This document shows, piece by piece, positions 3,020-45,537 of a DNA stretch of 45,964 nt. Numbering within the stretch: the stretch's first letter is position 1; each line of letters starts with the position of its first letter. The stretch is from the NCBI GenBank assembly GCA_017960605.1, contig JAGCYV010000078.1, positions 1 through 45,964 of the forward strand, given 5' to 3'. This stretch comes from Bacteroidales bacterium (GTDB taxonomy: Bacteria; Bacteroidota; Bacteroidia; Bacteroidales; P3). The position numbers and the translations under genes were made by a program. A model generated the notes under the pieces. It had not been told where the DNA came from. It saw only the letters and a list, made by a program, of their open reading frames with translations, and searched no databases.

Positions 3020-3685
3020 ATGAAATGGCCTCGATGGCTTGCAAGCCTCTGTGGAAAAGCGACTTGCAAAGAAGACGATATTGAACCGGTGAGCAAATAT
3101 CTCATAGTGGGACTTGGCAACGTGGGCTCCGAATACGAGGGCACACGCCACAACGCGGGCTTCATGGTGGTGGAGGCGCTGGCCAAGGCGGCCGACGCCA
3201 AATGGAGCCTAGAGCGCCACGCCTACCGCACGGAGGTGCGCCACAAGGGCCGCACGCTGGTGCTCATCAAGCCCACCACCTACATGAACCTCAGCGGCAA
3301 GGCGGTGAAATACTGGCTGCAAGCCGAGAAGGTGGAGCTGGCGAACCTGCTGGTGGTGGTGGATGACCTGGCCCTCGACCCCGGCATCCTGCGCATCAAG
3401 AAGCAGGGCGCCTCGGGCGGACACAACGGGCTGAAGGACATCGAAGCCGCCCTGGGCACCCAGGCCTACAACCGATTGCGGATGGGCGTGGGGGCCAACT
3501 ACAGCCGCGGCCATCAGATCGACTATGTGCTAGGCGGCTTCGACGGCGACGAAGAGGCGGCCATGAACGAGGCCGTCAATACGGCCTGCGAGGCGGTGCG
3601 GTGCTTCGTCACCCAAGGCATCGACCGCACGATGAACCTCTACAACAAGAAGGGCAACGCACACGAAGGGAAAGGCGAAAAGTGA
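3020..3685 (+). CDS. pth: Peptidyl-tRNA hydrolase
   Basis: Pth releases peptides from peptidyl-tRNAs that drop off the ribosome. All key sites are visible, counted from the ATG at 3020: GLGN (N34), TRHNAGF with catalytic H44, YMNLSG with N90, VVVDDLAL with the catalytic aspartate at 115-116, and SGGHNGL with N136. An N-terminal tail of about 25 residues, with three cysteines or basic patches, precedes the usual start at KYLIVGLGN. A GTG at 3089 would remove it, so the start is uncertain between 3020 and 3089. The stop overlaps the coaX start by four bases (GTGA), so the two are translationally coupled. Confidence 0.93.
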   Translation: MKWPRWLASLCGKATCKEDDIEPVSKYLIVGLGNVGSEYEGTRHNAGFMVVEALAKAADAKWSLERHAYRTEVRHKGRTLVLIKPTTYMNLSGKAVKYWLQAEKVELANLLVVVDDLALDPGILRIKKQGASGGHNGLKDIEAALGTQAYNRLRMGVGANYSRGHQIDYVLGGFDGDEEAAMNEAVNTACEAVRCFVTQGIDRTMNLYNKKGNAHEGKGEK

Positions 3686-4356
3686 ATCTGGCGATTGACA
3701 TAGGAAACACGGCCGTGAAATGGGCGACGTTCGAGGGCAGCACCCTCACCGACCAGGGTCACGGCATGCCCGACGACCTGCTGACGACGGCCGGACGGGT
3801 GCTTGTCTGCGCCAGCGGCGCCTCTGCCGACCTCACCCTGCCGCGTCTCAGCGCCGACACTCCGTTGCCGATACGCCTCGACTACAAGACCCCGCAGACG
3901 CTGGGGCCCGACCGTGTGGCGGCGGCTTGCGGCGCCTGGTCGCTGCACCGCGGCGAAGACTGCCTGGTGATTGACGCGGGCACCTGCATCACGGTGGATT
4001 TCCTCGACCACGAGGGAGTGTATCACGGCGGCGCCATCCTGCCGGGCATCGGGATGAATTTGCGAGCCCTGCATACTTTTACGGCCAAATTGCCGTTAAT
4101 AGAACTTGAGTCCGGCCGGAAGGCTCCGGTGCTGGGCCGCTCGACCGAGGAGAGTATCGTGGCCGGGACGCTGGGCGCCACCACGTTGGCGCTGGCGGGT
4201 TTTGTTGCCCTCTACCGCGAGAAATGCCCCTCGCTGCGGGTGTTGCTCACCGGCGGCGACGCGGCACGCCTCATGGCGGCAGGCACCAACGGATGGGAGC
4301 ATGTGCCCCATCTGACGCTGATTGGATTGAACGAAGTGATGGAGTTTGGGTTATAG
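3682..4356 (+). CDS. coaX: Type III pantothenate kinase
   Basis: CoaX phosphorylates pantothenate, the first step of coenzyme A synthesis, and belongs to the ASKHA fold. The start is a GTG at 3682 that overlaps the pth stop; this gives VNLAIDIGNT at the N-terminus, which is where the family begins. Visible motifs are DIGNT (6-10), GPDR (75-78), DAGTCITVD (98-106) and GGAILPG (116-122). The length of 224 residues is slightly short of the usual 240-260 but no motif is missing. A CoA-transferase and an AMP-ligase elsewhere in the window use CoA chemistry, but they are not linked to it by operon structure. Confidence 0.92.
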   Translation: MNLAIDIGNTAVKWATFEGSTLTDQGHGMPDDLLTTAGRVLVCASGASADLTLPRLSADTPLPIRLDYKTPQTLGPDRVAAACGAWSLHRGEDCLVIDAGTCITVDFLDHEGVYHGGAILPGIGMNLRALHTFTAKLPLIELESGRKAPVLGRSTEESIVAGTLGATTLALAGFVALYREKCPSLRVLLTGGDAARLMAAGTNGWEHVPHLTLIGLNEVMEFGL

Positions 4357-20177: not shown

Positions 20178-20239
20178 CATCTGCATAGGTGAAGGACGTA
20201 TCCTTCATATAAACCAATGCAACAGCACTTTGAAAAAAT

Positions 20240-20420
20240 AAACAAACAGGTTCCGCCCTGCAAAAAGGGTGGCCAAGAGGGAATCACGTGTAAATCGTGA
20301 GCTGTCGCGCAACTGTAAATCACAAGAATTATCCTTCGGCGATATGCCATTGGACTGAAACAATGTCTGAGAAGGTGCCGAACGGAAAGTGAAAGCCAGG
20401 ATACCTGCCTTTTTGTTTCG
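20240..20420 (+). promoter_or_regulatory. Cobalamin (adenosylcobalamin) riboswitch
   Basis: The leader carries the cobalamin aptamer core. Present are ggccaagagggaatcacgtg, taaatcgtgagc, then gtcgcgcaactgtaa (20303-20317), and the B12 box aaagccaggatacctgcc at 20392-20409. The 5' caggt (20247-20251) can pair with acctg in the closing stem. It sits about 150 bases upstream of the CoA-transferase ATG and about 60 after the promoter start. Cobalamin binding normally lowers expression of the downstream gene. No rho-independent terminator with a long T-run is obvious after the aptamer, so control of translation is more likely. Confidence 0.93.
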
Positions 20421-20565
20421 GACAATGCTTTCGCGTCAAAAGCCATTTGCCCCCATGGCCGCTCCTGTCGTCCATTTCCGCATCCCGCTATTATTTATGA
20501 CACGTCTTCCGCATTGCCCTAAAGTGATGTGGAAACTTTGATATTAACATAAAATAAGAGCAAAT

Positions 20566-41744: not shown

Positions 41745-41821
<77 letters not shown>

Positions 41822-41822
41822 A

Positions 41823-41848
41823 AGAGGGTCGCATAACGGCCCTTTTTT
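41823..41848 (+). terminator. Hairpin with T-run after the first tRNA
   Basis: agggtc (41825-41830) pairs with ggccct (41838-41843) around gcataac, followed by six T. The second tRNA starts ten bases later with no new promoter, so the hairpin must allow read-through or serve as a processing site. Confidence 0.7.
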
Positions 41849-41858
41849 GATAAAGCAA

Positions 41859-41931
41859 GGGGTAGTAGCTCATCTGGTAGAGCATTTGGTTCGCAATCAA
41901 AAGGTAGTGGGTTCGAGTCCCATCTACTCCA
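41859..41931 (+). tRNA. tRNA-Ala (anticodon CGC), CCA not encoded
   Basis: Acceptor GGGGTAG pairs with CTACTCC, including G3-U70, the alanine identity pair. The anticodon stem is TTTGG/TCAAA with a G-U closing pair and loop TTCGCAA, giving CGC. The T-stem GTGGG/CCCAT carries loop TTCGAGT. After the discriminator A the sequence reads CAAAAG, so CCA must be added by enzyme. Partial copies of this gene follow. Confidence 0.92.
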
Positions 41932-41933
41932 CA

Positions 41934-41958
41934 AAAGAGGCAGAGATGCCTCTTTTTT
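41934..41958 (+). terminator. Rho-independent terminator after tRNA-Ala(CGC)
   Basis: agaggca (41936-41942) pairs with tgcctct (41947-41953), loop gaga, followed by six T including the stem end. Confidence 0.85.
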
Positions 41959-41961
41959 GTT

Positions 41962-42060
41962 TCGCCACCAAAAGGTAGTGGGTTACCTCCATAAAGTCGG
42001 TGGGCGCACCACGAGTCCCATCTACTCCACAAGAAGAGAGGCTGAGATGCCTCTTTTTTT
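41962..42060 (+). pseudogene. Broken tRNA-Ala(CGC) 3' half with an insert in the T-loop, plus terminator
   Basis: Bases 41962-41984 match tRNA-Ala(CGC) from the anticodon loop to the first two T-loop bases (21 of 23). Then 27 foreign bases (41985-42011) interrupt the T-loop, after which 42012-42030 resumes with the exact 19 last bases of the tRNA. A copy of the terminator (agaggc/gcctct with T-run, 42037-42060) follows. The 5' half of the tRNA is missing, so this is not a functional tRNA. Confidence 0.85.
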
Positions 42061-42065
42061 TGTTG

Positions 42066-42118
42066 TTCCGCAATCAAAAGGTAGTGGGTTACCTCCATAA
42101 AGTCGGTGGGTCATCGGA
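42066..42118 (+). pseudogene. Second broken tRNA-Ala(CGC) fragment
   Basis: The fragment repeats the anticodon-to-T-stem region of the tRNA and then the first 20 bases of the same insert. Bases 42075-42110 are identical to 41969-42004 (36 bases). It then departs into tcatcggagg without the tRNA 3' end. Confidence 0.8.
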
Positions 42119-42330: not shown

Positions 42331-42533
42331 ATTTGCCTCTTAGGCAAATCCGAACGGCATTTTCTATCAATCTATCAGTCTATCAGTTGTTTTTTGAGGG
42401 GGTACTTGTTTCTTATTTTTACTCTTTTCTTATTTATATATATCTTATTATTAATTAATTATAAGTATTATAAAGAAGGGGTTCTGAAAGAAGGGATATC
42501 CTTTTTTTAATTGATAGACTGATAGATTGAGAC
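42331..42533. repeat. Repeat unit 1: arms of CTATCAGT words around an AT-rich core
   Basis: A 19-bp perfect inverted repeat (42367-42385 and 42512-42530) is made of tandem words like tctatcag. Between the arms lie gttgttttttgaggggg, an AT-rich core, and aattataagtattataaag followed by aaggggtt. A small hairpin (atttgcc/ggcaaat, 42331-42349) precedes it. Units 2 and 3 share this plan with different arm words. Confidence 0.85.
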
Positions 42534-42582
42534 ACGCCCTTTCTCTACAAGGCATTGGTTTTAAATGCTTTGTATGGAATTG

Positions 42583-42754
42583 CAGTCTCAGTCTCAGAGT
42601 CTCAGTCGTTTTTTTAAGGGTATTCAACCCTCCTTATTTCTATCTATTATTATATCTATATAATTAATTATTAATTATTTATAAGTATTATAAGAAGGGG
42701 TTTCGAGTTGATAGGTATCTTATTTTTTTGACTGAGACTGAGACACTGAGACTG
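42583..42754. repeat. Repeat unit 2: arms of CAGTCT words around a similar core
   Basis: The left arm 42583-42607 and right arm 42730-42754 are 25 bases each and complementary at 20 positions. Both are made of cagtct/agactg words. The core repeats that of unit 1: gtttttttaagggtatt near the left arm, and tttataagtattataagaag followed by gggtt at 42678-42703. Confidence 0.85.
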
Positions 42755-42779
42755 AAACCGACACGATATAGGAACCACG

Positions 42780-42862: not shown

Positions 42863-42894
42863 TTTGGCCAGTTTGGAAAAACTTCGTACCTTTG
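42863..42894 (+). promoter_or_regulatory. Promoter of the structured RNA / R-M gene
   Basis: TTTG at 42863-42866, a 20-base gap and TACCTTTG at 42887-42894 match the consensus. Predicted transcription starts near 42900, directly before the first hairpin of the structured leader. Confidence 0.85.
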
Positions 42895-42900
42895 CAGTCA

Positions 42901-43219
42901 ACTTCGGGGGAGAAATCCCGGAGTTAATAATTGAAGCATTTGCTATTATTTCGCGTTAAGCCAAAAATGCCTAGGAAACATTGATTGGAATAACAACGCC
43001 ACTGAAATAATAGAGGATAGGGGTATCAGGAATGGTGCCTTTGCAAGTTGTATTAGCAATGCTCACGCTACTTTAGCGTGATGCGCTTGTTAAACTTGCA
43101 GGGGTTCCAAACCGTTCCTAGGCATTTGCCCCTCAGCTTAACGCAACAAGAGGCATCGCGCTTTCTTTTTGCGGCCAGGCGATTGATAGTCAAATGCCAG
43201 TATTGAGTAAACTATCAAT
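42901..43219 (+). ncRNA. Candidate structured RNA or leader upstream of the R-M gene
   Basis: No ORF of note lies here, but long helices do. Hairpin 42902-42908/42917-42923. Helix A gcgttaagc (42953-42961) with gcttaacgc (43136-43144). Helix B of 13 perfect pairs (42965-42977 with 43115-43127). Helix C of 12 pairs (43038-43049 with 43093-43104). Helix D tcacgcta/tagcgtga (43063-43070/43074-43081). Helix E ctattattt (42943-42951) with aaataatag (43005-43013) crosses A and B, which would make a pseudoknot. A last 9-bp hairpin (43182-43190/43211-43219) ends six bases before the R-M ATG. I do not recognise an RNA family. It may be an independent small RNA or a cis-acting leader. Confidence 0.7.
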
Positions 43220-43224
43220 TGAAT

Positions 43225-45537
43225 ATGGCAAAAAACGCTTTTGTAAAGAAGTATGACGATGAGAAGACTGGACAAAACGAGTTCTTCCAACTGTATTTGC
43301 CTCGTGTAGATTCATCGCTTGATGTATCCGATGTGCAACGAGATTACTCTGACGGTGTTGTAAAAGGGAATATCCTCGAGTTTAAAACGCTCATTGATAA
43401 CCCAAATTCAGTATTGTCGCAGGCAATCAAGTATTTGTCTTCCATGAGAGTAAAAGGGCGTTCAATCCCGTCCAATATTTTGTTAGTCTCATTGAATAGC
43501 ACGACGATATACGTGTATCATTCAGAGGACTATTTAAAATGGATAGAGCAGGTGTATGTAGGGCCGGCTTCACGCAATAATGAATTGTTTGTGGCGGGTG
43601 ATGCTGTGATGAAACTTGATTATAGTGATTCTTCACAAGAAGAAGAAATGATAAAAATTCTTCGCGAAGAGAAATACACGAAGATTCACATTGACGAGAA
43701 CTGTATTGTAGGGTGGGCATCTCGCTACTACAGGGAGTTTCCTTCAGAGACAAAGGCCTCTTTCATCGGAGACAATACCGGACAGACAAGAATTATCGGC
43801 GAAATAAGAAACCCCTCCAGATTCCGAGAACTCATCTATCCATATACAGGGAAAAGCAATGAGAAGTTCCGTTATCTGATGGATCGTTTGAATGATGATT
43901 TACATAGGAAAAACCTTGGTGCATTCTATACTCATCCTATCTATGCCGAAAAATCATTGGAACTTGTACGTAAAGCTATTGCGAGAGTCCCCCAAGGAAA
44001 CGACTATATCATCATTGACCGCTGTGCCGGCACAGGCAATCTGGAGTCAAAAATGACGGAAGAAGAACTATCACATACGATAGTATCCACCTATGAATAC
44101 TACGAATATAAAGTGCTTTCAGCCACGTTTGGCTCCAAAGTACGTCACATTATTCCTCCTACGGAAAAAACTGATACATTTAATGGAGGAATGGTGCGCG
44201 GTGCCAATGCTTTGAGTATGGAGTATATCAATAATGAAACAATCAGGCAATATATTGACAATCCCAAGTACACTATCATTCTTTTCGAGAATCCTCCGTT
44301 CGCAGAAACGACATCAATAGAACATCAGAAGAAAGATGTTGGTAAAGCAAGCTCCGAATGGAAAAAATATGACGTTGTCAGGGAAATGAAAAAAGAGGAG
44401 AAAGGGAAAGCATCGAATGATCTCGGCAATGTTTTCATATGGTCGGCCTTCAAATATTACCTACGTCAGCCTACTGACAGCTATATTGTCTACTCACCTG
44501 TGAAGTATTGGAAAGCACAACATCTTATTAATAAACGTTTTATTGACGGTTTTGCTTTTAATCGTAAACACTTCCATACAAATATTGCTGCTACTATTAT
44601 GGTGGCGTTATGGAGCAATGAGGATGATTGTGAAATTGACAGTTTCAATATTGAAGGCTTTGATATAGACAATGATAAAAAACTGTCATCGGTGGGTTCA
44701 TTACCTATAAAAAAACTACATTCTCCTGCATTCAGCAAGCTGTACTACGATAAACGGCGTTTTTCAGATGATACAGAAGATGGAATACTTTGTGAGCAGA
44801 ACGGAATAGAGCGCCAAAGCAAGGAGAGAAATACATGTATCCCCTTATACAATAACAATATAATAGGTTATATGGTGGTTGATACATCTGGTTTTGATAA
44901 TCCTGATTTACATTCTCTTATTTTGGTTGCAGGAAAATTCAATGCTCATGGCTTCTTCCTTCGAAATGATAACTTCCTTGAGAAGCTTCCGATGTTTGCT
45001 GCCAGTCGTTATATTACTTACAATAGAGCATGGACGGAGCGTAGTCGGATAATGAAATCGGGAGATGGTGCGGAAAAGTACAATAAGGATGTGAAAAAAG
45101 GCAAGCTGGATGACTATCTATTAAAATGTTTGCTATTTACTGTTCTTGAACCACAGAACCATATGCGGGAATTTGTAGGTTCTGATGGACGACATTACAA
45201 GAATCAACTATGTCTTGACAATACAAATGGCGAAACTTTGGCCAGCAAGACTCTCGAATCAATGAAAAAGACGAAAGAAGAAACGACCCTTCTATCTCTT
45301 TGGGTAAAGATATTATCGCAGGCTAAACTAACGGCGAAATATAATCCAAACTACAACTATGGATTGTATCAGATAAAAACTGAATTGAATACCACGCATG
45401 TTGACCCGGATACAGGCGATAATGTACCCGACTATCCGGAATTGAACGGCAATATTGAAACACTTGCGCGCCACGTGAAGGACTATTATCTCAAAGAGAT
45501 TGTCCCAACACTGTTTGAATATGAATTCTTGAAATAG
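43225..45537 (+). CDS. Type IIG-like restriction enzyme/N6-adenine methyltransferase
   Basis: The product has 770 residues from the ATG at 43225; a TTG two codons earlier is inside the leader hairpin. The N-terminus looks like a PD-(D/E)xK nuclease: D43 in YSDGVVKG, then E52-F-K54 in NILEFKTL. The methylase core starts with NLGAFYTHPIYAEKSLELV (about 225-245), motif I DRCAGTGNLE (about 266-275) and the catalytic NPPF (about 356). The C-terminal 250 residues would hold target recognition. One polypeptide with both activities is the type IIG plan. The gene is AT-rich, unlike its neighbours, and stands alone behind a structured leader, a sign of horizontal acquisition. Confidence 0.85.
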   Translation: MAKNAFVKKYDDEKTGQNEFFQLYLPRVDSSLDVSDVQRDYSDGVVKGNILEFKTLIDNPNSVLSQAIKYLSSMRVKGRSIPSNILLVSLNSTTIYVYHSEDYLKWIEQVYVGPASRNNELFVAGDAVMKLDYSDSSQEEEMIKILREEKYTKIHIDENCIVGWASRYYREFPSETKASFIGDNTGQTRIIGEIRNPSRFRELIYPYTGKSNEKFRYLMDRLNDDLHRKNLGAFYTHPIYAEKSLELVRKAIARVPQGNDYIIIDRCAGTGNLESKMTEEELSHTIVSTYEYYEYKVLSATFGSKVRHIIPPTEKTDTFNGGMVRGANALSMEYINNETIRQYIDNPKYTIILFENPPFAETTSIEHQKKDVGKASSEWKKYDVVREMKKEEKGKASNDLGNVFIWSAFKYYLRQPTDSYIVYSPVKYWKAQHLINKRFIDGFAFNRKHFHTNIAATIMVALWSNEDDCEIDSFNIEGFDIDNDKKLSSVGSLPIKKLHSPAFSKLYYDKRRFSDDTEDGILCEQNGIERQSKERNTCIPLYNNNIIGYMVVDTSGFDNPDLHSLILVAGKFNAHGFFLRNDNFLEKLPMFAASRYITYNRAWTERSRIMKSGDGAEKYNKDVKKGKLDDYLLKCLLFTVLEPQNHMREFVGSDGRHYKNQLCLDNTNGETLASKTLESMKKTKEETTLLSLWVKILSQAKLTAKYNPNYNYGLYQIKTELNTTHVDPDTGDNVPDYPELNGNIETLARHVKDYYLKEIVPTLFEYEFLK

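What the first reader, a model, noticed from the sequence alone, without database searches (positions are those of the whole stretch)
42887..43225. Undescribed structured RNA between a strong promoter and a type IIG R-M gene
The leader of about 325 bases is too long and too structured for a plain 5' UTR. It has nested perfect helices of 9, 13, 12 and 8 base pairs closing at 42953/43144, a crossing 9-bp helix that would form a pseudoknot, a hairpin at the predicted transcript start, and a hairpin ending six bases before the ATG. No riboswitch, tmRNA, RNase P or intron core that I know matches. Control of a toxic nuclease by RNA, or an RNA partner of the enzyme, are both open ideas.
Basis: partly seen in the sequence, partly recalled or inferred. 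Interest (0 to 1): 0.78.

Follow-up and report, generated by a model that had tools for sequence, protein, structure and literature searches.

The report
Shared RNA leader of DNA-defence genes
The stretch encodes an uncatalogued, strongly folded RNA that gut and rumen Bacteroidales place directly in front of many different DNA-restriction and cell-surface genes, where it most likely acts as a built-in on/off switch for them.

Summary
The 42.9-43.2 kb leader folds far better than shuffles (z -6.7) and matches no Rfam family. A covariance model finds it (49 bits or more, own genome included) in 62 of 190 same-family and 15 of 295 order genomes, but in no other genome of 395 phylum-wide ones. P1, P2 and the P4 tip covary strongly, with G-U well above A-C, so it acts as RNA on this strand. 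It is no partner of this enzyme: among 138 distinct members with a called gene, 99 precede restriction-modification or defence genes (16 labels), 17 surface-glycan genes, and similar RNAs precede genes of different families. The start codon lies a median 42 nt after the model end. A Bacteroidota -7 box lies upstream in 103 of 139. Two helices compete for one strand: the P4 tip, and a long-range helix between P4's 3' arm and a tail followed by a U-run. Both covary. Of 38 EcoRI-type methylase loci without a first-pass model hit, 19 show the same arm/tail layout; two others have a helix-turn-helix coding region there. Best reading: a cis-acting attenuator leader. Transcription, termination and trigger are untested.

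The parts
42863..42894 (+). Bacteroidota-type promoter: TTTG at 42863-42866 and -7 box TACCTTTG at 42887-42894; start of transcript about 42900 (inferred)
   Evidence: Sequence. TAnnTTTG lies within 230 nt upstream of the RNA core in 103 of 139 members, against 13.9 expected from mononucleotide shuffles. The consensus is recalled.
42900..42925 (+). 5' hairpin at the presumed transcript start
   Evidence: Fold; similar 5' hairpins with a GAGA-containing loop are visible by eye in several relatives, not counted.
42943..43013 (+). Crossing helix (pseudoknot) 42943-42952 with 43004-43013
   Evidence: 82.7% of cells paired; covariation weak (score 0.131 against 0.122 shuffled, 5 of 500 shuffles reach it); cognate 17.5, swapped 16.4, maximum 16.7.
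42953..43144 (+). P1, 42953-42961 with 43136-43144
   Evidence: both-side changes at 9 of 9 pairs in A3 and 4 of 9 in A4 (alignments fitted to this helix); 2 of 9 in A2.
42965..43127 (+). P2, 42965-42977 with 43115-43127 (10 of its pairs modelled)
   Evidence: both-side changes at 8 of 10 pairs in A3 and 9 of 10 in A4; 5 of 10 in A2, aligned without structure.
43063..43081 (+). Tip of hairpin P4: 43063-43070 with 43074-43081
   Evidence: 98.2% and 94.0% of cells paired, both-side changes at 4 of 5 pairs in each; cognate 18.2, swapped 14.7.
43075..43162 (+). Long-range helix between the P4 3' arm (43075-43084) and the tail (43153-43162); excludes the P4 tip
   Evidence: both-side changes at 7 of 9 and 9 of 9 pairs on alignments not fitted to it (register chosen for best pairing); mean 10.2 bp, cognate score 23.6, swapped 16.9 +/- 0.30.
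43163..43170 (+). U-run directly after the tail (TTCTTTTT)
   Evidence: At least 5 T in the 8 nt after the paired tail in 127 of 143 members.
43182..43219 (+). Inverted repeat around the ATTGATAG motif, ending five bases before the ATG
   Evidence: Motif in 107 of 143 members, with a partner of at least 7 bp downstream in 92.
43225..45537 (+). 770-aa protein with N6-methyltransferase-like motifs; type IIG-like by motifs only
   Evidence: no significant family match in Pfam, none in PADLOC or NCBIfam and no PDB sequence match at E 1 or better.

Best explanation
The region is the 5' leader of the mRNA of the downstream gene and a member of a widespread RNA family, not in Rfam 15, of Bacteroidales. 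P1, P2 and a pseudoknot form a scaffold that carries hairpin P4. The 3' arm of P4 can pair with its own 5' arm (P4 tip, read-through) or with a tail about 70 nt downstream that is followed by a U-run (terminator-like). Which helix wins would decide how much transcript reaches the gene; the inverted repeat before the ATG may add control of translation. Genes of many kinds (restriction systems, surface-glycan enzymes) have been placed behind the same leader. Shown: conserved structure, strand, promoter box, gene association, mutually exclusive covarying helices, the U-run. Inferred: that termination occurs, that the switch is regulated, what triggers it, and that its purpose is to hold down costly or toxic genes.
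For: Covariation of P1, P2 and the P4 tip. Covariation of arm and tail, 7 of 9 and 9 of 9 pairs, and cognate arm/tail score far above swapped (23.6 against 16.9, maximum 17.8). 130 of 143 members have both helices, sharing 7.3 arm nucleotides on average. U-run in 127 of 143. G-U pairs 129 against A-C 38. Promoter box in 103 of 139. Gene start a median 42 nt after the model end for the 99 R-M/defence genes and 40 nt for the 17 glycan genes. Of 11 pairs of members with differently labelled genes that I chose to compare, RNA identity is 84-90% in 5 and 69-81% in 6. Arm/tail/U-run layout in 108 of 138 members and in 19 of 38 methylase loci without a hit, against 5 of 257 other gene starts.
Against: No transcript data. 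The nested fold with arm:tail enforced is about 17 kcal/mol worse than the best fold of the window leader, because P1 and P2 must open (-100.7 against -117.3), so it would have to form as a pseudoknot or with help. The U-run can also pair inside a local tail hairpin, which could explain its conservation without termination. In A3 two of the five arm:tail measures are not clearly above shuffles (90 and 56 of 500), and sliding by two columns still pairs 63% of cells. Thirteen members precede other genes with a longer gap (median 93 nt), and for three places no gene was called although contig remained (L209, L211, L187). 49 of 101 EcoRI-type methylase loci have no hit (three of them reach 49 bits with filters off).
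Confidence: 0.62

Rival explanations
1. Cis-acting leader that controls translation or mRNA stability, not termination: the arm/tail exchange is coupled to the inverted repeat that covers the region just before the start codon.
For: ATTGATAG motif in 107 of 143 members and a partner before the ATG in 92; fixed distance to the ATG. Hairpins that limit access to a restriction gene's start site are known in other R-M systems (passage of PMC12707154).
Against: Of the 13 members before other genes, 12 lack the motif, yet 10 of the 13 keep an arm:tail helix of at least 7 bp followed by a U-run. The U-run (127 of 143) is not needed for translational control.
Confidence: 0.2
2. Cis-acting RNA that makes RNA polymerase resistant to termination or recruits an antiterminator (like put RNA, EAR or NusG-type leaders; recalled), so that acquired genes are transcribed.
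For: Restriction and surface-glycan genes as targets; the RNA stays while genes change.
Against: Many targets look like short one- or two-gene units (not counted); a competing terminator-like helix next to the RNA is not expected of a pure antiterminator.
Confidence: 0.08
3. Separate small RNA that acts in trans, or an RNA partner or guide of the enzyme.
For: Independent fold and own promoter box.
Against: The same RNA precedes R-M or defence genes of 16 labels and glycan enzymes; the enzyme's relatives in Limosilactobacillus lack it; 116 of 138 called downstream genes are labelled R-M/defence or glycan genes on the same strand, with a near-constant gap (only the same strand was looked at).
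Confidence: 0.06
4. Mobile DNA element or recombination site whose inverted repeats fold by chance; the conserved letters are DNA sites.
For: Genes of different kinds stand behind similar copies; the element sits in different neighbourhoods.
Against: One copy in the window's own genome, which is 78% complete; pairs are kept through changes on both sides; G-U exceeds A-C. I did not search for a matching site at the other end of the genes.
Confidence: 0.04

Closest known systems
Transcription-attenuation leaders and riboswitches with mutually exclusive helices (general kind)
   Same: Long structured 5' leader, two exclusive helices, one of them followed by a U-run, fixed distance to the gene.
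   Different: No Rfam family matches; the exclusive helices are far apart and the long one crosses P1 and P2; targets are mainly restriction and surface-glycan genes; ligand or factor unknown.
Controller (C) proteins of type II R-M systems
   Same: Stands in front of R-M genes as a regulator would; in two of the EcoRI-type loci without the RNA an HTH coding region stands at that place (L328 HTH_3, E 1.6e-10; L322 by eye only, without an ATG that I could place).
   Different: RNA, not protein; also stands before genes that are not R-M.
Antisense RNAs of EcoRI and Eco29kI, and hairpins at restriction-gene start sites (passages of PMC3874152 and PMC12707154)
   Same: RNA-level control of an R-M operon.
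   Different: The antisense RNAs are made from reverse promoters inside the R gene; here the RNA is a leader of about 300 nt on the coding strand, shared by many systems.
NusG-paralogue/leader systems of Bacteroides capsule loci (UpxY; search listing only, details recalled)
   Same: Leader-linked control of surface polysaccharide genes in Bacteroidales.
   Different: No upxY-type gene was looked for beside the RNA; most called targets here are R-M genes; the extent of structure differs (recalled).
RptR repressor of R-M systems (start of abstract and one passage of PMC12255303)
   Same: One regulator shared by different R-M systems.
   Different: Protein repressor; the text holds no 'Bacteroid' and no 'untranslated'.

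Membership tests
Any Rfam 15 family | Match at the curated gathering score | tested here: not met
   Window: only a cobalamin riboswitch and two tRNAs elsewhere; 601-nt region at E up to 10: two sub-threshold hits; two sets of 20 loci with members or leader-like regions: one tRNA only, and none.
Structured cis-regulatory leader RNA (general kind) | Conserved secondary structure supported by covariation | tested here: met
Structured cis-regulatory leader RNA (general kind) | Same strand, fixed position before the gene, promoter upstream | tested here: met
Transcription attenuator | Two mutually exclusive helices, one a terminator with a U-run | tested here: met
   Sequence level only. Termination itself was not tested.
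Transcription attenuator | Premature 3' end at the U-run that responds to a signal | not testable with these tools
   Needs RNA-seq or 3'-end mapping.
Riboswitch | Small-molecule ligand bound by an aptamer | not testable with these tools
   No ligand is suggested by the mixed set of target genes.
Peptide-leader (trp-type) attenuator | Conserved short ORF in the leader | tested here: inconclusive
   By eye only: an ATG near P2 in the window and L026 is absent in L032; no systematic count.
RNA-guided or RNA-partnered enzyme system | RNA stays with one protein family | tested here: not met
   enzyme relatives without the RNA.

The most novel reading that the evidence does not exclude
Bacteroidales own a common RNA control module for phage-facing genes: a pseudoknotted leader with a three-strand switch behind which restriction systems of many types and surface-glycan modifiers are exchanged like cassettes, all answering to one shared cellular or phage-made signal, for example a change in RNA polymerase termination during infection. 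In some EcoRI-type loci a protein controller takes the RNA's place.
Probability: 0.25. Interest if true: 0.92.

Novelty: new variant of a known kind. Interest (0 to 1): 0.82.

Why it matters
How restriction systems are kept from killing a new host, and when defence genes are switched on, is discussed in the passages I saw in terms of controller proteins, methylation, HTH methylases, antisense RNA and start-site hairpins. In the 2025 R-M review the words riboswitch, attenuat-, leader and noncoding RNA do not occur. A single RNA leader family that stands before many different restriction and surface-glycan genes in gut and rumen bacteria would make a shared control of phage-facing genes directly testable, with a member in a named strain (Bacteroides rodentium JCM 16496).

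Tried and rejected
Known RNA family: rejected. Multi-copy mobile element in the own genome: one copy only. Phage or plasmid origin of the RNA: no plasmid match and only 22-nt chance matches in three phage records; 38 IMG/VR stretches matched a short pattern but none scored over 17 bits with the model. Outer closing helix P0 (42936-42942/43191-43197): cognate 13.8 against swapped 13.2, maximum 13.9, so not supported as an ungapped helix. Pseudoknot: conserved, covariation weak (on A3 only). Leader peptide: no conserved ORF seen by eye, not counted. RNA as enzyme partner: rejected because target genes belong to many families.

Rows dropped before counts. One search has 116 rows: the own one, 103 at 49 bits or more, and 12 at 30.3 bits or less that I left out, so 70 of 190 genomes at E 0.01 become 62 of 190. 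That search used strict filters: with filters off, three places it missed reach 49 bits (L323, L339, L362), so its counts are lower bounds; 19 of 295 at E 0.01 become 15 of 295 after dropping G174, G279, G183 and G283 (all under 30 bits). Of 151 matches (74, 77), 8 are duplicates, leaving 143; 5 have no called gene (L102 and L216 at contig ends; L209, L211 and L187 with contig left), leaving 138. Sets are not random draws: one search's loci share a pattern that I chose, and one search's come from the blastn hits and mostly the best-scoring model hits. Gene classes come from Pfam scans of 45 first genes (9 of them also against PADLOC, and the window's), a sequence motif for the EcoRI-type methylases, and likeness by eye for the rest; 6 of the 17 glycan labels (L167, L170, L194, L197, L214, L225) are by eye. 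The Sulfatase-family hits being lipid or glycan modifiers is inference. Two genes of 822 and 837 aa were left unclassed; the one scanned had no family. In one search I entered 101 PF13651 loci and left out 5 rows that are second pieces of a listed gene. Of the 49 without a hit I examined 38; of the other 11, seven were fetched (L364-L370) and searched only with the model, with no match, and four were not fetched. For L011 the layout rule was run at the annotated start, which lies inside an inserted IS30 copy, so that one test says nothing.

Literature: (search listings and starts of abstracts), passages of three papers. I saw nothing like this family in those listings; subscription papers and preprints are mostly not held.
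Full report
Observation. The leader 42887-43225 folds at -119.7 kcal/mol against -87.9 +/- 4.8 for 100 dinucleotide shuffles (z -6.67, 0 of 100); the other strand gives z -5.56. Rfam 15 has no match for it.

Homologues. A blastn search of 190 genomes of the same family hit 15, the own one included; two of the others (L038, L039) looked like chance. Thirteen cores were aligned with MAFFT and made into covariance model R1. R1 matches 62 of 190 same-family genomes at 49 bits or more (70 at E 0.01; up to 9 matches in one genome, G841), 15 of 295 order genomes (19 at E 0.01), and only the own genome among 395 of the phylum at E 0.001. One search's filters missed at least three further places. A pattern scan of named genomes gave 118 stretches; 77 of the 80 that became loci match R1. 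Titles are mostly Prevotella, Paludibacteraceae, Muribaculaceae, Bacteroidaceae and unplaced Bacteroidales assemblies, many from rumen and gut, plus Bacteroides rodentium JCM 16496. No viral contig matched above 17 bits.

Structure. On the alignment made without structure, 24 pairs give 93.2% paired cells and covariation score 0.252 (shuffled 0.095, 0 of 500; slid at most 0.046), though further pair types do not exceed shuffles (219 of 500). On the two larger alignments, fitted to P1, P2 and the P4 tip, the figures are 95.5% and 0.470 (73 distinct) and 95.4% and 0.413 (77 distinct). In these helices G-U pairs number 129 and A-C 38, which points to the plus strand as the folded RNA.

A three-strand switch. 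The 3' arm of the P4 tip is also complementary to a tail near the end of the leader. In 143 distinct members the contiguous arm:tail helix is 10.2 bp on average; its score is 23.6 against 16.9 +/- 0.30 (maximum 17.8) when tails are swapped between members. Arm and tail columns covary on alignments not fitted to them, 7 of 9 and 9 of 9 pairs with changes on both sides, scores 0.445 and 0.450 against 0.276 and 0.252 shuffled (I chose the register for best pairing; in A3 the number of such pairs is reached by 90 of 500 shuffles). The P4 tip passes the same swap test, 18.2 against 14.7. 130 of 143 members can form both, and the two share 7.3 arm nucleotides on average, so they exclude each other. 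After the tail, 127 of 143 have at least five T in eight positions. This is the layout of an attenuator. Against it: with nested folding only, arm:tail costs about 17 kcal/mol in the window leader because P1 and P2 open; a local tail hairpin also passes the swap test, 18.7 against 15.2, and could by itself explain the U-run.

Context. A TAnnTTTG box lies within 230 nt upstream of the core in 103 of 139 members, against 13.9 expected. Of 138 distinct members with a called gene downstream (same strand only), 99 precede R-M or defence genes, 17 surface-glycan genes, 13 other genes (lipoproteins, a Tat peptide beside a further ORF with radical-SAM-like sequence by eye, BspA-like and others), and 9 are unclassed, other, without a clear gene or at contig ends. 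The R-M group holds EcoRI-type methylases (76), Eco57I, D12, C5, C5+Eco57I, type I M and R, type III, type ISP, MmeI, Tsp45I, N6/N4 methylases, the window's IIG-like type, a DrmD-like helicase, a ResIII-HNH protein and a PDC-S11 protein. Some of these methylases are distant relatives of one another; others, such as C5 methylase, Tsp45I and HsdR, are not. In 11 chosen pairs with differently labelled genes the RNAs are 84-90% identical in 5 (for example the window and L027, 0.88; L098 and L109, 0.90) and 69-81% in 6. Model end to start codon is a median 42 nt for R-M and 40 nt for glycan genes.

From the gene side. Of 101 PF13651 loci in 190 family genomes, 52 have an R1 match of 49 bits or more directly upstream. 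I looked at 38 of the other 49. With filters off three of these reach 49 bits (L323, L339, L362). Under a fixed rule (hairpin whose 3' arm pairs with a later tail before a U-run), 19 of the 38 have the layout, 18 with the tail end 35-90 nt before the ATG; leaving out L362, it is 18 of the 35 that stay under 49 bits, and several of those (L309, L310, L317, L319, L331, L346, L363) share little sequence with R1. The same rule gives 108 of 138 members (82 at that distance), 5 of 257 other gene starts (2), 0-2 of 38 shuffles of the same loci in five rounds and 1, 1 and 6 of 138 shuffled members. One of the 19 (L355) has the tail 135 nt from the ATG and may be chance; L323, L339, L341 and L342 look like leaders by eye but fail the rule. 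Two others have a helix-turn-helix coding region instead (L328, HTH_3 E 1.6e-10; L322 by eye), and four have an EcoRI endonuclease gene directly upstream (PF02963, E 1e-118 or better).

The window gene. Its relatives in Limosilactobacillus plasmids (4 records, about 43% identity over 94-100%) have no such RNA upstream: in two records an ORF ends about 12 nt before the gene, in one the gene is cut by an IS30 copy, and R1 finds nothing above 13.1 bits in the four loci. Its relatives L026 and L179 in Bacteroidales do have the RNA. So enzyme and RNA are separable. Its type IIG nature rests on motifs alone.

Reading. I hold cis control by an RNA leader as very likely (about 0.9 over the best explanation and the first two rivals together) and transcription attenuation as the likeliest way (0.62). 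The trigger is unknown. That restriction and glycan genes, both of which meet phages, share the leader suggests a common signal; this is inference.

Noticed in passing
window 20231-20426 (+): Cobalamin riboswitch, 99.9 bits.
   Followed up: no
window 41745-42110: Two tRNA-Ala genes (GGC, CGC) followed by partial repeats of the tRNA 3' part and a repeated 52-nt stretch.
   Followed up: no
window 42367-42530 and 42580-42757: Two long inverted repeats (arms 22 and 28 nt, about 120 nt between them) with similar AT-rich middles, just upstream of the RNA promoter.
   Followed up: no
L309, L310, L317, L319, L331, L346: A second, very different leader sequence (CTATTTATTCGGCAC type in the first five) with the same arm/tail/U-run layout before EcoRI-type methylases.
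   Followed up: partly
L340-L342, L345, L348, L358, L360, L361, L363: Further diverged leaders of similar layout by eye; seven of these nine pass the fixed rule.
   Followed up: partly
L036, L101, L110, L114, L117, L121-L124, L129: Members, many in genus g358, stand before lipoprotein, Tat-peptide, BspA-like and other genes, mostly with a longer gap and without the ATTGATAG motif; up to 9 matches per genome.
   Followed up: partly
L029 7083-8194, L030 about 3645-3785: Broken or truncated EcoRI-type methylase genes behind an apparently intact RNA.
   Followed up: no
L028 8360-9553 and similar second genes: GmrSD_N-HNH proteins follow several EcoRI-type methylases (three scanned); the L028 one matches a type II REase model of PADLOC.
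   Followed up: partly
L343, L351, L354, L356: True EcoRI endonuclease genes directly upstream of EcoRI-type methylases, without the leader between them.
   Followed up: yes
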